Virus record (IMG/VR): IMGVR_UViG_3300010885_038765
Coordinates: 1-26,293 of that record
Strand: one strand, 5' to 3'
From: a virus
DNA length: 26,293 nt
Shown here in pieces: positions 2,658 through 15,811 of this stretch (the stretch's first letter is position 1; each line of letters opens with the position of its first letter). A model generated the notes under the pieces. It made no database searches. It had not been told where the DNA came from and was given only the letters and a program-made list of their open reading frames with translations. The position numbers were made by a program, and so were the translations under genes.

Positions 2658-2940
2658 ACCGCTGGCGCGGCTGCGGCTCGACGGATCGGAGCCGTGCCGC
2701 GGCCGGCATGACCTGTTTTTCCCTGATCGCACCAAACCGGCGAGCCGCAAACTGATCGCCCAGGCCGTGGCAATGTGCGAGGCGTGCCACCAGATGGACG
2801 CCTGCCGGGAGGTTGGCGTCGCTAACCGGGAGCCCGACGGTGTTTGGGGTGGTGTTGACCTGTTCCAGATGAACGGACCGGAGGCGTGGCAGGCGAGACG
2901 ACGCGCACGTGACAGGGCAGCCAGAGCAAAGAAAGACTAG
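2644..2940 (+). CDS. WhiB-family iron-sulfur transcription regulator-like protein
   Basis: With the GTG at 2644 the protein is 98 aa. It has the four WhiB cysteines: C18, then C45 and C48 (C-x2-C), then C54 after five residues. The GVWGG turn follows at residues 66-70, with a basic tail (about 84-97) suited to DNA or sigma-factor contacts. WhiB proteins bind a [4Fe-4S] cluster and contact the primary sigma factor of Actinobacteria; phage members such as TM4 WhiB are known to interfere with host WhiB2. The start is not certain: no strong ribosome binding site precedes 2644, and the overlap with the upstream gene suggests coupling. Family assignment is strong. Confidence 0.85.
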   Translation: MAARKPLARLRLDGSEPCRGRHDLFFPDRTKPASRKLIAQAVAMCEACHQMDACREVGVANREPDGVWGGVDLFQMNGPEAWQARRRARDRAARAKKD

Positions 2941-2948
2941 ACCATCCG

Positions 2949-2966
2949 ACCTATTTAGGTTAGTAT
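2949..2966 (+). promoter_or_regulatory. Leaderless promoter with palindromic operator-like site
   Basis: TAGTAT at 2961-2966 is a TAnnnT -10 hexamer ending 6 nt before the ATG at 2973. TAGACC at 2938-2943 matches four of six bases of TTGACA at 17-nt spacing. Directly upstream of the -10, ACCTA-TT-TAGGT (2949-2960) is a perfect 5-bp inverted repeat in an unusually A+T-rich patch. It sits where a repressor or activator would bind. No Shine-Dalgarno sequence precedes the ATG. Confidence 0.5.
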
Positions 2967-2972
2967 ACGCGG

Positions 2973-3071
2973 ATGTTCCGTAGAATCTTCCAACCTGAAG
3001 TCGTGTTCGCGTGCCTGGCCGGCGCACTGTTTCCGCTCATGGCGGCATTCGTCGTGGCGGTGCGCTACTGA
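2973..3071 (+). CDS. 32-aa single-pass membrane peptide
   Basis: The ATG at 2973 opens a 32-aa frame. A basic N-terminus (MFRR) is followed by a hydrophobic stretch (about residues 10-30) that would span the membrane once. The stop overlaps the next ATG (TGATG at 3069-3073), consistent with coupling. It directly follows a promoter with leaderless geometry and is therefore the first gene of its transcript. No family is recognisable at this length. It could be a true membrane microprotein or a leader peptide driving translation of the gene behind it. Confidence 0.5.
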   Translation: MFRRIFQPEVVFACLAGALFPLMAAFVVAVRY

Positions 3072-4361: not shown

Positions 4362-5341
4362 CTGTCATCGAACCAATCCCCTACGCTCCGGGCGATCCTG
4401 CTTGGCATGAGTCGAGACGCTCGTTCATCGGAGCATCTGACGTGCCGGCCGTCCTCGGCCTGTCGCCGTGGCGCACCCCGCTTGACGTGTGGGCTGAGAA
4501 GGTCGGGCTGATCGTCCAGCCGGCCGGGTCGGGCAGTCTCGCCACCCGGCTCGGCCATGAGCTCGAAGGGCTGATAGCGAGGCTGTGGGCCGACGAACAT
4601 CCCGACGCCGAGGTCACCCACAACGAGATCACGCTCCGCGATCCGGCGAGGGCCTGGCTTGCCGCTAGCACCGACCGCGAAGTCGGAGCCGACGGGCTGC
4701 TGGAATGCAAGCTGGTCGGCGCGTCGACTACGTCGCTGTGGGACGACGGTGTGCCTGACCACGTTCACGCCCAGTGCGTCGCACAGCTCGCCGTGACCGG
4801 CCGGCAGTGGGTCGACGTGTGTTCGCTGCACGCCGGGCGCCGGTGGGAGCATCGCATCGACCGGATCACCCGAGACGACATCGAGATCCGGGACATGGTC
4901 ACCCACCTGGAACGCTGGTGGTTCGGGCATGTCGTCACCGGCATCCGGCCGAGGCTCGACGGCGACCCGCATCGCATCCGCCAAACGCTGGACGCCCTCC
5001 ATCCAGGTGAAACGAGACTGGCCGTCACCGTCGCAGCGCAGTTCGGCGCAGACATCGCCGACCTGAAGCACGCCAAGGCGGTCGTAGCGTCGCTGAGGAA
5101 AGACATTGAGCGGATGGAAAACCATCTGATCGCAGCGATCGGCGACGGCACCGACGCACACATCGACCCGGACGAACCGCCGGTGTACACCTACCGGGCG
5201 CAGATCCGCACGTCCCACGACCTGAAGGCGATTGACAGCGGCAAAGTTGACGGCTGCGACAGCGACGAGATCGCAGCCGCTCGAAAGGTCCTTGACGCTG
5301 TCACCCGCCACACCCGCTTCCGCACCCTCCGCATCCGCTGA
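4358..5341 (+). CDS. YqaJ-family viral recombinase (5'-3' exonuclease)
   Basis: This 327-aa protein has the YqaJ/lambda-exonuclease core: an IGASDVPAVLG segment at residues 24-34 followed by PW-x-TP, a GHELEG helix near 66-71, D106 in ASTDRE, the E116-x-K118 pair in LLECK, and a helical Q-x2-LAVTG segment near 142-148. Such nucleases resect double-stranded DNA ends and hand single strands to a RecT-type annealase, which is the next gene. The C-terminal third (about 220-327) includes a likely helical Ala/Lys segment. The ATG at 4358 overlaps the preceding stop. The family call is strong. Confidence 0.9.
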   Translation: MTVIEPIPYAPGDPAWHESRRSFIGASDVPAVLGLSPWRTPLDVWAEKVGLIVQPAGSGSLATRLGHELEGLIARLWADEHPDAEVTHNEITLRDPARAWLAASTDREVGADGLLECKLVGASTTSLWDDGVPDHVHAQCVAQLAVTGRQWVDVCSLHAGRRWEHRIDRITRDDIEIRDMVTHLERWWFGHVVTGIRPRLDGDPHRIRQTLDALHPGETRLAVTVAAQFGADIADLKHAKAVVASLRKDIERMENHLIAAIGDGTDAHIDPDEPPVYTYRAQIRTSHDLKAIDSGKVDGCDSDEIAAARKVLDAVTRHTRFRTLRIR

Positions 5342-5363
5342 ACTAGAAAGCCGAGATCCTGTT

Positions 5364-6119
5364 ATGACCACCAGCCAGCCGCCTGCTGTCGTTGATACGC
5401 AACCGTCGTCAACGCCGGCGAGGCTCACCGCTAAGCAGCTGATTCGCAGTGCCGTTGACATCAACCGGCGCGAGATTGAAGCAGCCCTGCCCGACGGCTA
5501 CGTCGGCGGGCCGGAACGATTCGCCCGCACCGTGCTCACGTGCGTTTCCAGGGACCCGGGCCTCCTCAAGTGCACCCCTCAGTCCATCATCGGCGCCGCC
5601 ATGCAAGCCGCCCAGCTTGGGCTTACACCCGGCGTGCTCGGCGAAGCCTGGCTGATCTCCTACAACGACCAGTGCACTTTCCAGGTTGGGGTGCGGGGAC
5701 TGATCGCACTTGCCGCCCGGTCAGGGCTCGTGATTCGGGCGCACACCGTCGCCGAACGCGACACGTTCGACTACGAACTGGGTTTGCGGCCGATCCTGCG
5801 GCATATCCCGGCGCACGGCGACCGTGGCAAGTCAACGGCTTGGTATGCGGTCGCGACTGACAGGGCGACCGGCGACGTGATGGGCTTCGCTGTTCTCGAC
5901 AGGGAGCAGGTCGAGAAACGACGCAAAGCCAACCGAGGCAAGTCGCCGGCCTGGGAAAACTGGTATGACGAGATGGCGCTCACCAAGGCCGTGCGCGAGG
6001 TGTGCCGGTTCCTGCCGTTGTCGGTGGAACTTGCTACCGCCATCGCATCCGACGGCACGGTGCGCACCGAAGTCGCCGGGCACGCCGACGAATATGTCGT
6101 CGAGGAGATGTCGGAATGA
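5364..6119 (+). CDS. recT: RecT-family single-strand annealing protein
   Basis: This 251-aa protein matches the RecT layout. A disordered N-terminal 20 residues is followed by a segment with TVLTCVSRDPGLLKCTPQS and then the signature AAQLGLTPG (about 76-84). The QVGVRGLIALAARSG core and the KSPAWENWYDEMALTKAVR helix come last. RecT proteins coat resected single strands and anneal them to complementary DNA without ATP. The ATG at 5364 lies 22 nt after the exonuclease stop; the frame is open upstream but only through exonuclease coding sequence. The stop overlaps the SSB start (ATGA), so recombinase and SSB are co-translated. Confidence 0.9.
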   Translation: MTTSQPPAVVDTQPSSTPARLTAKQLIRSAVDINRREIEAALPDGYVGGPERFARTVLTCVSRDPGLLKCTPQSIIGAAMQAAQLGLTPGVLGEAWLISYNDQCTFQVGVRGLIALAARSGLVIRAHTVAERDTFDYELGLRPILRHIPAHGDRGKSTAWYAVATDRATGDVMGFAVLDREQVEKRRKANRGKSPAWENWYDEMALTKAVREVCRFLPLSVELATAIASDGTVRTEVAGHADEYVVEEMSE

Positions 6120-6541
6120 CCACCACCGTCGTCGGCAACACCACACGTGACCCTGAGCTGAGGTTCACGAAGAACGGGCTCGCCATGCTCACCGTCGGGG
6201 TGGCAGTCAACCGCAAACGAGGCGACGAGGAAACCACCTCGTTCTTTGATGTGGTGGCGTTCGGGTCGCTCGCCGAGAACGTCGCCGAATCCTGTCCGAA
6301 AGGCTGCCGGGTTGTGGTCACCGGCCGGCTGGAGCAACGCAGTTGGGACACCGACAACGGCGAACGCCGATCCAAGGTCGAGATCGTCGCCGACGAGATC
6401 GGGCCGTCGCTCCGCTGGGCGACCTGCACCGTGACCCGCAACGTTGGCGAACGGACTTCCGCAGCCGCATCAGGCGTCCAGCACGCGTGGGACAAACCGA
6501 CCGGGCAGAGCACCGTCCAGTACGGCGAAGAACCGTTCTGA
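6116..6541 (+). CDS. ssb: Single-stranded DNA-binding protein (SSB)
   Basis: This 141-aa protein carries an N-terminal OB fold typical of SSB: VGNTTRDPELRFTKNG at residues 6-21, FFDVVAFGSLAENVA near 43-57, and GRLEQRSWDTDNGERR near 70-85. A flexible linker leads to a C-terminal EEPF, matching the acidic-hydrophobic tip with which SSBs recruit partners. It would protect single strands made by replication and by the YqaJ nuclease. The start overlaps the recT stop. A strong hairpin lies 11 nt after its stop. Confidence 0.93.
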   Translation: MTTTVVGNTTRDPELRFTKNGLAMLTVGVAVNRKRGDEETTSFFDVVAFGSLAENVAESCPKGCRVVVTGRLEQRSWDTDNGERRSKVEIVADEIGPSLRWATCTVTRNVGERTSAAASGVQHAWDKPTGQSTVQYGEEPF

Positions 6542-6611: not shown

Positions 6612-6848
6612 ATGGCGCAACGTCCACTCATCCCGAACCGTCGAGGATCGGCACCCCGCTTGTCGGTGCGCGCCACGCAGGATCTCATCGACGCCCTCGA
6701 CCACCTCGCCGCCGTCGAAGGCCGACGGCGGTCGGAGGTGCTGCGCGACGCGCTTGAGCTCGGCGTGCGGGCCCGGCTGGATGCGGCCATGACCGCAGCC
6801 GCACTCGATGTCGGGCAGCAACGCCCGTCAGCCGGCCCCGGCCGATGA
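6612..6848 (+). CDS. Ribbon-helix-helix (CopG/Arc-type) DNA-binding protein
   Basis: This 78-aa protein has the pattern of a ribbon-helix-helix regulator: a short strand (APRLSVRATQDL, about residues 14-25), then two helices (IDALDHLAAVEG and RRSEVLRDALELGVRARL) with the S-x-V-x-R-x-A-L signature. Such proteins bind DNA as dimers and often autoregulate. AGGAGA at 6601-6606 gives a good ribosome binding site for the ATG at 6612. Its stop overlaps the start of the replication gene, so it may control replication or act as the repressor of this transcript. Confidence 0.8.
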   Translation: MAQRPLIPNRRGSAPRLSVRATQDLIDALDHLAAVEGRRRSEVLRDALELGVRARLDAAMTAAALDVGQQRPSAGPGR

Positions 6849-7603
6849 CCTGGGTCAAGCTCGACGACGGATTCTTCATGCACCCCAAAGCGCTCGCAGC
6901 AGGGCGAGACGGCCGCGACCTCTATCTGGCAGGTTTGTGCTGGTCGGCCGGACAGGAAACGGACGGGCTGATCCCGGCGCACGCGTTGGCGTTGATAGCG
7001 ATGGTCGCCGGGGTGGCAGACGCCGACCAGGCGGCATCCCGGCTCGCCGAGGTCGGCCTGTGGATAACCGACGTGGACGGCTGGCAGATCCGTCGTTACG
7101 GCGACTGGCAGACCACTCGCGCCGAGCGTGACGCCTGGCGGGCCAAAGAACGGGAGCGGTCCAAGAAGAACCGAAACGGACCGAAACAGACTGACACGGA
7201 ACCCAACGTACGCGAAACGTACGCGCGTACTACGCGCGTAGTACGCGACCTAGATGTAGATGTAGATGTAGATGTAGAACTGTCATCATCAGGCGACAGT
7301 TATCCACAGTCCGGCCGGCAGCCTGCCGATGACGATGACAGACCGAAACAAGCCATGCAACACGTCGCCTCAGCCCTCGCCGCCAAACACAAAGCCCGCA
7401 GTCCCGCCTACGCCCGCACCGTCATCCGAACCGGCGACCAGCTCCCAGAACTGCAAACGCTCGCAGCAGCACACCCCGACGACACCCCCAGCGCACTCGC
7501 CCTCCGATACCTCGACCACCTCGACCAGCCTCCCCCACCAACCGTCCGCTGCGCCCGCTGCCACGCAATCAGCCACCCCACAGAAAGATGCCCCACAACA
7601 TGA
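6845..7603 (+). CDS. Replication initiator-like protein (DnaD/replisome-organizer type) with embedded origin
   Basis: This 252-aa protein begins with MTWVKLDDGFFMHPKA, a start shared by actinophage replication proteins whose N-terminal winged-helix domain (about residues 1-100) resembles replisome organizers. A charged linker (about 95-160) contains DV repeats encoded by hexamer DNA repeats. A C-terminal part follows and ends with a Cys/His cluster (CARC then H and C) that may bind zinc. The DNA encoding the linker has a palindrome, direct repeats and two DnaA boxes on either side, as in lambda, where the origin lies inside the O gene. The start overlaps the preceding stop. Family call is moderate because initiator domains diverge quickly. 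Confidence 0.7.
   Translation: MTWVKLDDGFFMHPKALAAGRDGRDLYLAGLCWSAGQETDGLIPAHALALIAMVAGVADADQAASRLAEVGLWITDVDGWQIRRYGDWQTTRAERDAWRAKERERSKKNRNGPKQTDTEPNVRETYARTTRVVRDLDVDVDVDVELSSSGDSYPQSGRQPADDDDRPKQAMQHVASALAAKHKARSPAYARTVIRTGDQLPELQTLAAAHPDDTPSALALRYLDHLDQPPPPTVRCARCHAISHPTERCPTT
7059..7067 (-). promoter_or_regulatory. DnaA box (perfect 9-mer, minus strand)
   Basis: TGTGGATAA is the reverse complement of TTATCCACA, the consensus DnaA-binding 9-mer. It lies inside the initiator-like gene, about 230 bp before a second perfect box in the opposite orientation. Confidence 0.55.
7205..7225 (+). repeat. Tandem direct repeat AACGTACGCG (two copies, 11-bp period)
   Basis: AACGTACGCG occurs at 7205-7214 and again at 7216-7225. 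The 11-bp period puts both copies on the same face of the helix, as expected for an initiator-protein binding site. The second copy runs into the 24-bp palindrome. Confidence 0.6.
7224..7247 (+). repeat. 24-bp perfect palindrome in the candidate origin
   Basis: CGCGTACTACGC (7224-7235) is followed without a gap by its exact reverse complement (7236-7247). Two shorter palindromes, GTACGCGCGTAC (7219-7230) and TACGCGCGTA (7231-7240), are nested in the same patch. This could be an operator for a dimeric regulator or a cruciform-forming part of the origin. Confidence 0.7.
7251..7274 (+). repeat. Iteron-like hexamer repeat TAGATG x4
   Basis: TAGATG is repeated four times in tandem (7251, 7257, 7263, 7269) and a partial unit follows. 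It is A+T-rich compared with the surroundings and encodes alternating Asp-Val in the initiator linker. It may be a duplex-unwinding element or iteron array; it may also be only a low-complexity linker. Confidence 0.55.
7300..7308 (+). promoter_or_regulatory. DnaA box (perfect 9-mer, plus strand)
   Basis: TTATCCACA matches the consensus DnaA box exactly. It is 26 bp after the hexamer repeats and inside the initiator-like gene. With the inverse box at 7059-7067 it frames the palindrome and repeats. Confidence 0.6.
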
Positions 7604-7790: not shown

Positions 7791-8186
7791 ATGACCTCGA
7801 CCACCACCGGCAGCACCAGGGCATACCGCACCGCCCGAGTCGCCGTCCTCGACCGCGACCACTGGATCTGCCGATGGTGCAACCGCACCGTCCACCCCAC
7901 CTGCCGTAGAGGGTGCGATGACTGCGCTACCGTCGACCACATCCGACACCAACGAGACGCCCCACACCTCCGCACCGACCCCACCAACATGATCGCCGCC
8001 TGCCGCTGGTGCAACCTCACCCGAGGAGTCGGCGAACGGCCCAGACCGCGGCCCGTCGGCAGCCGGCGACCCCCAGGGGCACCTGAAAGTCCGAGCAAAA
8101 CCGAAGGGACAGGGCCCGATCGGGAGAATCCCCCCCCCAGGTCGCCGGGACGTTTCCGGCCGGCGAGGGAGTTGCCGCAATGGTGA
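7791..8186 (+). CDS. HNH endonuclease
   Basis: This 131-aa protein has a clear HNH core: CRWC at 27-30, a second Cys pair near 38-45, the DH catalytic pair at 49-50, N66 in TDPTNMIAACRWC, and the closing CRWC at 71-74. Phage HNH proteins next to terminase genes are known to assist DNA packaging by cutting concatemers. Here two modification genes separate it from the terminase. The C-terminal 55 residues are Arg/Pro-rich and low in complexity and include a run of nine C bases (8130-8138), where a sequencing error could change the reading frame. The ATG follows a leaderless-type promoter. Confidence 0.9.
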   Translation: MTSTTTGSTRAYRTARVAVLDRDHWICRWCNRTVHPTCRRGCDDCATVDHIRHQRDAPHLRTDPTNMIAACRWCNLTRGVGERPRPRPVGSRRPPGAPESPSKTEGTGPDRENPPPRSPGRFRPARELPQW

Positions 8187-8998
8187 CCAGTAACGCCGGC
8201 AAGTCCACGCCCCGCATCGTCATCGGCCTGGAGCAGCTTCTTGTACCGGTTGGCGACCTGGCCTTGCTCGACGGCAACCCGCGCCGAGGCGACGTTGACG
8301 CGGTCGCCCGCAGCCTTGACGCCTTCGGCCAGCGCAAGCCGATCGTCGTCCGTCGCGCCGACCGCACCGTCATCGCCGGGAACCACACGCTGCGGGCGGC
8401 GCGCCAGCTCGGTTGGCCTGACGTCGCCGTCGTCTGGGTTGACGATGATGAGGTGACCGCCAAGGCGTTCAGCCTCGCCGACAACCGCACTGGGGACCTT
8501 GCCCGCTACGACGACGAGCTGCTGGCCGAGATGATGGGCGAGGTGCAGATCGACCCGGCGCTGTTCGCCGTGACTGGTTGGACGAACGACGAGCTGGCAT
8601 TGCTGCTCGCCCCAGTTGAGCTGCTGCCTCCTGAGCCAAGCGCCGAGCGATACATGCTCTCGGCCAAGTCTCCGGTCTACGAGCCGACCGGCGCGCAGCC
8701 GGCAGTCAGCGACCTGTACAACCGGGCGTGGGCCGACGAGCTGATCGCCGAGATCGACGCGACCGAGCTGCCAGAGGAGGTGGCGACGTTCCTGCACGCC
8801 GCCGCTGAGCGCCACGTCCGCTTCAGCTTTAGGGATGTTGCCGAGTTCTACGCCCACGCCGATGCTGACGTCCAGCGGCTGATGGAACGCTCGGCGCTGG
8901 TCATCATTGACTTCCATCAGGCACTTCAGCTCGGCTACGCCCAGCTGAACGAAACGGTGGCGGCGCTGTACGACGAGGATTACGGCAACGATGCGTGA
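8180..8998 (+). CDS. ParB-like nuclease/DNA-binding domain protein of a DNA modification cassette
   Basis: This 272-aa protein has an N-terminal ParB/Srx-type domain (about residues 15-115). NPRRGDVDAVARSLDAFG is near 33-50, GNHTLRAARQLG at 67-78, and LADNRTGDLARYDDELL near 99-115. The second half (about 155-270) is a helical domain with FLHAAAERHVRF and ERSALVIIDFHQALQLGY stretches. I recognise this combination as one that occurs next to the glycosyltransferase family found here. ParB-like folds bind DNA and in some families hydrolyse nucleotides. A role in guiding or preparing bases for modification is inference. The start overlaps the HNH stop, and the end overlaps the glycosyltransferase start by 8 nt. 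Confidence 0.8.
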   Translation: MVTSNAGKSTPRIVIGLEQLLVPVGDLALLDGNPRRGDVDAVARSLDAFGQRKPIVVRRADRTVIAGNHTLRAARQLGWPDVAVVWVDDDEVTAKAFSLADNRTGDLARYDDELLAEMMGEVQIDPALFAVTGWTNDELALLLAPVELLPPEPSAERYMLSAKSPVYEPTGAQPAVSDLYNRAWADELIAEIDATELPEEVATFLHAAAERHVRFSFRDVAEFYAHADADVQRLMERSALVIIDFHQALQLGYAQLNETVAALYDEDYGNDA

Positions 8999-15551: not shown

Positions 15552-15811
15552 TAGTGCGGATGGTCCGTCAGATCACCGGCTTGCGAGACGGTTTGCGGTG
15601 GCCGGCGGCAGGCGGGGAGATCGACCTGCCCGACTGGGAGGCCAAGGCGCTCGTCGGCAACGGCGACGCCAAGTCTGCTGTCGGTGGCGGACCATCCGAC
15701 GATCACGGCGATTCGGGCGGTGTCGCCGTAACGCCCTCCGGCGAGGCGAGCACCTCGTCGGAGGGCTCCCCGCAACGCACCCGCACCCGCACCCGCACCC
15801 GCAGAAGCTGA
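15548..15811 (+). CDS. Small head/neck-region protein with low-complexity tail
   Basis: This 87-aa protein starts with GTG at 15548, overlapping the preceding stop. Residues 1-40 have a pattern common just after the capsid gene in actinophages (ITGLRDGLRWPAAGGEIDLPDWEAKALVGNG). The rest is a Gly/Ser/Thr/Asp-rich tail ending in four RT dipeptides encoded by CGCACC repeats. The tail DNA also encodes a 14-bp hairpin (15733-15766). Function is unknown. The folded part may be a small virion subunit and the tail a disordered binding arm. Confidence 0.65.
   Translation: MIVRMVRQITGLRDGLRWPAAGGEIDLPDWEAKALVGNGDAKSAVGGGPSDDHGDSGGVAVTPSGEASTSSEGSPQRTRTRTRTRRS
15733..15766 (+). other. 14-bp hairpin inside the coding region
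   Basis: GCCCTCCGGCGAGG (15733-15746) pairs with CCTCGTCGGAGGGC (15753-15766) across a 6-nt loop, with one G-U pair as the only imperfection. It lies near the end of the 87-aa gene, 49 nt before the connector gene start. It could attenuate transcription or set relative expression of capsid and connector genes. Confidence 0.55.
15776..15803 (+). repeat. CGCACC tandem repeat (four copies plus a partial)
   Basis: Four in-frame CGCACC hexamers (15776-15799) and a partial fifth encode alternating Arg-Thr at the end of the 87-aa protein. Slipped replication here would change the tail length in 2-residue steps without shifting the frame. Confidence 0.7.

What the first reader, a model, noticed from the sequence alone, without database searches (positions are those of the whole stretch)
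7059..7308. Candidate replication origin embedded in the initiator gene
Within 250 bp the initiator-like gene holds two perfect, inverted DnaA 9-mers (7059-7067 and 7300-7308). Between them are two 11-bp-spaced AACGTACGCG repeats, a 24-bp perfect palindrome (7224-7247) and four TAGATG hexamers. DnaA boxes are A+T-rich and unlikely by chance in this G+C-rich sequence, and both lie in this one gene. The arrangement recalls lambda, where the origin is inside gene O.
Basis: partly seen in the sequence, partly recalled or inferred. Interest (0 to 1): 0.7.

Follow-up and report, generated by a model that had tools for sequence, protein, structure and literature searches.

The report
Phage replication origin inside initiator gene
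The middle of this phage's replication-initiator gene carries a second, DNA-level message, a probable replication start site built from initiator binding repeats, an easily melted short tandem repeat, a hairpin and a host DnaA box, and relatives keep the same layout even where it is no longer protein-coding.

Summary
The observed sequence elements are all present at the stated coordinates and are far from chance. The gene (6845-7603) is an actinophage replication initiator (phrog_2447). I read the region as a compact origin, about 7205-7308: iterons (four GTACGCG cores; the 24-bp palindrome is an inverted iteron pair), then (TAGATG)4, the lowest-GC 30-bp stretch of the record, then a 7-bp-stem hairpin, then one DnaA box (7300-7308). 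The other DnaA box (7059) overlaps codons of a conserved Gly-Leu-Trp motif and is probably incidental. Of 93 homologs picked by their N-terminal domain alone, 78 have a short tandem array or G-quadruplex motif at the same place; where arrays exist, iterons commonly lie just upstream and a hairpin just downstream. In split initiators the module lies in non-coding DNA. A different initiator family (Microbacterium phage vB_MoxS-R1) has the same order of parts. (TAGATG)n arrays also follow iterons in unrelated phage initiators, whereas arrays writing the same VDVDVD peptide with GTT do not. GC skew gives no support, DnaA boxes are rare in relatives, and nothing has been tested experimentally. Verdict: origin inside an initiator gene (a known kind) in a new, widespread variant.

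The parts
6845..7603 (+). replication initiator gene (252 aa), winged-helix-type N-terminal domain (about aa 1-111), linker, C-terminal helical part
   Evidence: phrog_2447 replication initiation protein E 1.8e-26; 153 actinophage records with N-terminal homologs, several annotated replication initiation protein; AlphaFold2 N-terminal domain pLDDT about 95; viral fold matches to actinophage initiators, replisome organizers and DUF1376 proteins
7205..7214 (+). iteron 1 AACGTACGCG (core GTACGCG 7208-7214)
   Evidence: p = 0.003 for four GTACGCG/CGCGTAC cores given the protein
7216..7225 (+). iteron 2 AACGTACGCG (core GTACGCG 7219-7225), 11 bp from iteron 1 and in another reading frame
7224..7247 (.). 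24-bp perfect palindrome; carries the core inverted at 7224-7230 and direct at 7241-7247, so read as an inverted iteron pair
   Evidence: only palindrome of 18 bp or more in the record
7251..7278 (+). (TAGATG)4 plus TAGA tandem array; candidate unwinding element / helicase entry site; encodes DVDVDVDV
   Evidence: lowest-GC 30-bp stretch of the record lies here; starts at gene nt 406, the modal array position in homologs
7278..7301 (.). hairpin, stem AACTGTC/GACAGTT, 10-nt loop
   Evidence: stems of 7 bp or more occur in 12 of 547 48-bp tiles of this record, but in 55% of 77 homologs directly after the array
7300..7308 (+). perfect DnaA box TTATCCACA, 22 bp after the array end, overlapping the hairpin foot
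   Evidence: TTATCCACA also follows the array in L221 and L237 and in the vB_MoxS-R1 module
7059..7067 (-). second DnaA 9-mer (TGTGGATAA on +), probably incidental: lies on Leu-Trp-Ile codons of the conserved GLW motif
   Evidence: none of 102 homologs has a strict box in the N-terminal region
6116..6541 (+). single-stranded DNA-binding protein gene, replication neighbour
   Evidence: phrog_44 E 3e-37
5232..6119 (+). RecT-like annealing protein gene, replication/recombination neighbour
   Evidence: phrog_148 E 1e-56

Best explanation
Positions about 7205-7308 are the phage's replication origin, overlapping the linker-coding part of its own initiator gene. Inferred mechanism: the initiator's winged-helix-type N-terminal domain binds the GTACGCG iterons (7205-7247) next to the place where it is encoded; strain from the complex, helped by host DnaA at TTATCCACA (7300-7308), opens the low-GC (TAGATG)4 array and hairpin (7250-7301); the C-terminal part and/or DnaA then bring in the replicative helicase, presumably the host's since no helicase or loader gene was recognised next to the initiator. 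Shown here: presence, non-randomness, DNA-level constraint and conserved order of parts. Inferred: protein binding, melting, helicase loading and direction.
For: 1. Anatomy: iterons, lowest-GC stretch, hairpin and DnaA box packed in about 100 bp. 2. In 93 homologs chosen by N-terminal domain only, perfect short tandem arrays occur at 2.28/kb in the linker versus 0.05-0.10/kb elsewhere; 78/93 have an array or a template-strand G-quadruplex motif; modal start nt 380-460, window 406. Synonymous resampling is significant (p<=0.05) in 64/93 linkers versus 6/93 N-terminal controls. 3. The 100 bp upstream of the array hold at least 3 copies of a 7-mer in 51% of 76 homologs versus 1-12% in other bins; a stem of 7 bp or more follows the array in 55% of 77 versus 0-5% in distant bins. 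4. Iteron class follows the motif at the end of the DNA-binding domain (0 of 20,000 permutations, not corrected for phylogeny), and iterons lie on both strands and in several frames. 5. In split initiators (L011, L189, L192, L194, L195, L228, L005) repeats and array are in non-coding DNA after the stop. 6. A different initiator family (vB_MoxS-R1, L033, L092, L125, L128, L459) has iterons, inverted TAGATG array, hairpins, TTATCCACA. 7. VD-frame (TAGATG)n: 28/48 have upstream iterons and PHROG hits are dominated by replication-initiator and DUF6291-type families; (TTGATG)n, same peptide: 4/38 and no initiator family among the hits shown.
Against: No experiment, and no mapped origin in any of these relatives was found. 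Cumulative GC skew has no turning point at the gene in six complete relatives nor in the window. Only 3 of 102 homologs have a strict DnaA box in the linker/C-terminal part, so DnaA use is not general. Most homologs carry a G+C-rich (CCCGA)n array, so a simple melting role for the array cannot be family-wide; there the low-GC dip is the 25 bp after the array (GC 0.49). The only near-identical relative (L003/L018) gives no independent evidence. TAGATG followed by TTATCCACA in the window's own orientation is not enriched in viral contigs: of 7 hits, one is the relative L018 and none of the other six looked initiator-like (control 2 hits).
Confidence: 0.82

Rival explanations
1. The repeats are a protein-level feature: a low-complexity acidic (DVDVDVDV) or Pro-rich (PDPTRPDPTR) linker spread by replication slippage, with no function for the DNA.
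For: The window's hexamer is in frame; low-complexity linkers between domains are common; slippage alone homogenises codons.
Against: The family array has a 5-bp period, not a codon multiple; iterons 11 bp apart are read in different frames; iterons lie on both strands and in several frames; repeats and array persist in non-coding DNA in split genes and in vB_MoxS-R1; the same VDVDVD peptide written with GTT is rarely next to iterons.
Confidence: 0.06
2. The repeats are an operator: the initiator or a neighbouring ribbon-helix-helix protein (6612-6848) binds them to control transcription.
For: Initiators often autoregulate through iterons (general knowledge); a ribbon-helix-helix-like gene lies directly upstream.
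Against: The site is mid-gene, about 360 bp downstream of the start codon; the array-plus-hairpin layout is not expected of an operator; the repeat class follows the initiator's own DNA-binding motif.
Confidence: 0.05
3. A recombination junction: the repeats promote exchange of N-terminal and C-terminal initiator modules among phages.
For: C-terminal parts differ widely among homologs sharing the N-terminal domain, and the array sits at the boundary.
Against: Iterons specific to each initiator class and class-specific array units would not give homology between lineages; the hairpin is unexplained. It may be a by-product rather than an alternative.
Confidence: 0.03
4. A partition (parS-like) centromere for the ParB-like protein encoded at 8180-8998.
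For: A perfect palindrome 0.9 kb from a ParB-like gene (phrog_620).
Against: No ParA was recognised among the neighbours scanned; the palindrome is built of iteron cores; array, hairpin and DnaA box are unexplained.
Confidence: 0.02

Closest known systems
phage lambda ori within gene O (and Stx-phage relatives)
   Same: Origin in the middle of the initiator gene; initiator-binding iterons next to a low-GC tract (PMC7466680).
   Different: Window initiator is phrog_2447 with no significant Pfam match, not shown to be an O homolog; the low-GC tract is a perfect hexamer array; a hairpin and a DnaA box follow; no lambda P-like loader gene was recognised next to it.
SPP1 oriL within gene 38
   Same: Direct repeats bound by gp38 plus an AT-rich unwinding element, inside the origin-binding-protein gene (PMC6316719).
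   Different: SPP1 has a second origin and its own loader and helicase; no short-period array, hairpin or DnaA box is mentioned there.
Actinophage 'replication initiation protein' / 'RepA-like replication initiator' genes (phrog_2447, phrog_3926)
   Same: Homologous N-terminal domain, similar gene neighbourhood (RecE/RecT, SSB), tandem array at the same place.
   Different: Relatives mostly carry (CCCGA)n or (CCCGT)n, G-quadruplex capable on the template strand; the window has (TAGATG)4 plus a DnaA box. Origins of these genes are not described in the papers found.
Microbacterium phage vB_MoxS-R1 initiator region (phrog_3171)
   Same: Iterons, TAGATG-type array, hairpins, TTATCCACA in that order.
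   Different: Different initiator family; array inverted; module lies after the stop codon (in frame in L459).
Prophage RepA origins of Miko/Rachaly/Jeeves
   Same: Phage-encoded initiator; the authors suspected the origin might lie within repA as in lambda (PMC7157519).
   Different: Those authors saw no repeated motifs in the region they examined near repA; they are extrachromosomal prophage replicons.

Membership tests
Initiator-gene-embedded iteron origin (lambda ori / SPP1 oriL kind) | Repeated initiator-type binding sites inside the initiator gene | tested here: met
   Four GTACGCG cores in 7205-7247, p = 0.003 given the protein; family-wide iteron enrichment at this position
Initiator-gene-embedded iteron origin (lambda ori / SPP1 oriL kind) | Adjacent easily melted (low-GC) tract | tested here: met
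   Lowest-GC 30-bp stretch of the record at about 7250-7289, 33% versus 65% mean
Initiator-gene-embedded iteron origin (lambda ori / SPP1 oriL kind) | Initiator protein binds the repeats; fragment replicates autonomously | not testable with these tools
   Only indirect: iteron class covaries with the end of the DNA-binding domain in homologs
Initiator-gene-embedded iteron origin (lambda ori / SPP1 oriL kind) | Helicase-loader gene next to the initiator | tested here: inconclusive
   None recognised among the neighbours scanned; not all ORFs were scanned and the record is a fragment; some homologs have DnaC-like/DnaB-like genes next door
Lambda O protein family | Sequence membership in a phage O family | tested here: not met
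   No significant Pfam match; PHROG hits are phrog_2447/3926/1882, not the O-like PHROGs
phrog_2447 replication initiation proteins | Profile match over the protein | tested here: met
   E 1.8e-26, residues 1-250
DnaA-assisted origin (DnaA box next to iterons and low-GC tract) | Perfect DnaA box at the origin | tested here: met
   7300-7308; TTATCCACA also follows the array in L221 and L237 and in the vB_MoxS-R1 module
DnaA-assisted origin (DnaA box next to iterons and low-GC tract) | Host DnaA needed for replication | not testable with these tools
   Needs binding assay and DnaA depletion
Bidirectional theta origin with GC-skew switch | Cumulative GC skew turns at the site | tested here: not met
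   No turn at the gene in six complete relatives or in the window; skew is confounded by one-directional gene blocks

The most novel reading that the evidence does not exclude
Phage initiators with winged-helix-type N-terminal domains share an undescribed origin grammar: initiator-specific iterons followed at once by a short-period tandem array (TAGATG, TAAATG, AATAAC or CCCGA types), in actinophages plus a hairpin, written inside or just after the initiator gene. The array would be a dedicated element, for example a strand-opening or helicase-entry platform, with TAGATG arrays recurring in unrelated initiator families and CCCGA arrays acting through a template-strand G-quadruplex.
Probability: 0.45. 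Interest if true: 0.75.

Novelty: new variant of a known kind. Interest (0 to 1): 0.62.

Why it matters
Origins of most actinophages and metagenomic phages are unmapped. If this layout is right, an origin can be read from sequence in many phage genomes by looking in the linker of the initiator gene. It gives initiator-iteron pairs for building replicons in Actinobacteria and poses a testable question: why a perfect short tandem array, G+C-rich in one lineage and A+T-rich in another, sits beside the iterons.

Tried and rejected
GC skew as an origin marker: no turn at the gene in Shoya, Footloose, Anatole, Appa, Xula, Melba or the window. DnaA box at 7059 as an origin part: lies on the conserved GLW codons. 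DnaA boxes as a family-wide feature: rare. The window's own orientation TAGATG-array then TTATCCACA as a virome-wide signature: 7 hits, only L018 initiator-related, control 2 hits. Hairpin after TAGATG arrays in non-actinophage initiators: not enriched (6% versus 7%), so the hairpin is a feature of the actinophage set. Solved-structure search: no significant match for the model. Searches with the window protein in viral and bacterial contigs found one near-identical phage and no prophage. An alignment of nine N-terminal domains was too diverse to scan with; five closer ones worked. Paper searches for TAGATG/VDVDVD arrays, for G-quadruplex origins in phages and for origins inside initiator genes found no prior description of these arrays; many subscription papers are not held.

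Full report
OBSERVATION. The two DnaA 9-mers (7059-7067, 7300-7308) are the only ones in the 26,293-b record, against 0.027 expected. The four TAGATG hexamers and both AACGTACGCG copies occur nowhere else in it, and the 24-bp palindrome is its only perfect palindrome of 18 bp or more. The record is a viral contig, linear and possibly a fragment.

THE GENE. ORF 6845-7603 matches phrog_2447, replication initiation protein (E 1.8e-26), between RecE/RecT/SSB genes and HNH, ParB-like and terminase genes (the HNH assignment is from reading the ORF, not from a profile hit). Its N-terminal 110 residues have homologs in 153 phage records, all phages of Actinobacteria. The AlphaFold2 model is confident in that domain. 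It resembles actinophage initiators, replisome organizers and DUF1376 proteins among viral models, but nothing significant among solved structures; a small winged-helix domain was among the weak hits there (E 2.8), so 'winged helix' is an inference.

RE-READING THE PARTS. GTACGCG occurs at 7208, 7219 and 7241 direct and at 7224 inverted, so the palindrome is largely an inverted iteron pair. The two direct copies are 11 bp apart and encode different amino acids, which argues for selection on DNA. The TAGATG array encodes DVDVDVDV with GTA (3% of valines in this phage) and GAT (17% of aspartates). About 7250-7289 is the lowest-GC 30-bp stretch of the record. A 7-bp inverted repeat (7278-7284/7295-7301) joins array and DnaA box. 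The 7059 box overlies Leu-Trp-Ile codons in a motif nearly invariant across homologs, so I do not count it.

FAMILY TEST. Homologs were collected by the N-terminal domain only, giving 102 distinct genes, 93 of them long enough to analyse. Perfect short tandem arrays: 2.28/kb in the linker versus 0.08 in the N-terminal part, 0.10 in the rest of the gene and 0.05-0.06 in flanks. G-quadruplex motifs on the template strand: 2.28/kb versus 0.00-0.44. 78/93 have one or the other. Units are mostly CCCGA or CCCGT, a 5-bp period. Synonymous resampling at p<=0.05: 64/93 linkers versus 6/93 controls. Just upstream, 51% of 76 have at least three copies of a 7-mer, versus 1-12% in other bins. Just downstream, 55% of 77 have a stem of 7 bp or more, versus 0-5% in distant bins and 25% in the bin just upstream. 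The repeat class follows the motif at the end of the DNA-binding domain: AG..GG..S with GAAGCA 11 of 13, ARERM with GTTCG 10 of 10, GNHxRWH with CCGATC 4 of 4, RQR-type with GTCAC or GTAAC 21 of 22, counting only genes whose repeats could be classed (0 of 20,000 permutations; shared ancestry is not removed). In four of six complete phages the array is the longest short tandem repeat of the genome, and in Anatole the second longest.

NATURAL EXPERIMENTS. In seven loci (L005, L011, L189, L192, L194, L195, L228) the initiator ORF stops early and the repeats and array lie in the gap after the stop; L011, L189, L192 and L194 are one phage group, so these are about four lineages. Protein function cannot explain them. 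In Microbacterium phage vB_MoxS-R1, whose initiator belongs to another PHROG (3171), repeats, (TACATC)n, hairpins and TTATCCACA follow in that order at and after the stop codon; L033, L092, L125 and L128 are alike, and in L459 the module is in frame.

TAGATG BEYOND ACTINOPHAGES. A scan for (TAGATG)3 found it in linkers of DUF1376, DUF6291, Phage_rep_org_N, Lin1244_N and other replication proteins, with phage-specific repeats directly upstream. As a control, (TTGATG)3, which writes the same peptide with GTT, was found in tail, portal and other proteins, with upstream repeats in 4/38 versus 28/48. In 62 DUF6291 genes chosen by N-terminus, linker arrays are 4.67/kb versus 0.01-0.02 in flanks, with units TAGATG, TAAATG, AATAAC and AAGGAT; part of the repeat counts given there comes from the arrays themselves.

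MECHANISM. Most likely: the initiator binds its iterons, the adjacent low-GC array and hairpin open with help from host DnaA at 7300, and the helicase enters. This follows lambda and SPP1, where origins sit inside the initiator gene and combine repeats with an AT-rich unwinding element. Binding, opening and loading are inferred.

LIMITS. GC skew gives no support. DnaA boxes are uncommon in relatives: TTATCCACA follows the array within 80 bp in 2 cases against 0.05 expected. The G+C-rich arrays of most relatives cannot melt easily; there the low-GC segment is the hairpin just after the array. No origin of this family appears in the papers found.

VERDICT. The kind (origin inside an initiator gene) is known; the recurrent short-period array with flanking iterons and hairpin looks like a new, widespread variant.

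Noticed in passing
L452 2530-3216; L033, L092, L125, L128, L459: Microbacterium phage vB_MoxS-R1 and relatives: probable origin directly after (or, in L459, inside) a different initiator gene, with inverted TAGATG array, hairpins and TTATCCACA.
   Followed up: partly
L366-L445 (DUF6291 family genes): DUF6291 proteins, listed by Pfam as of unknown function, look like phage replication initiators: GAAGCAAA-type repeats followed by TAGATG, TAAATG or AATAAC arrays in the linker.
   Followed up: partly
homolog linkers, e.g. L166, L133, L178: (CCCGA)n arrays in actinophage initiators form strong G-quadruplex motifs on the template strand and encode PDPTRPDPTR.
   Followed up: partly
L005 (Mycobacterium phage Dori) 1995-2372; L011 (Propionibacterium phage Anatole) 2001-2366: Initiator genes that stop early, with the repeats left in the intergenic gap; in Anatole and its relatives the repeat itself (GGGTAAGC) contains the stop codon.
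   Followed up: partly
window 15776-15803: A 28-bp CGCACC tandem repeat among the structural genes, as long as the origin array; no iterons looked for.
   Followed up: no
window 2922-3008: A second low-GC stretch (42% over 80 bp), of unknown role.
   Followed up: no
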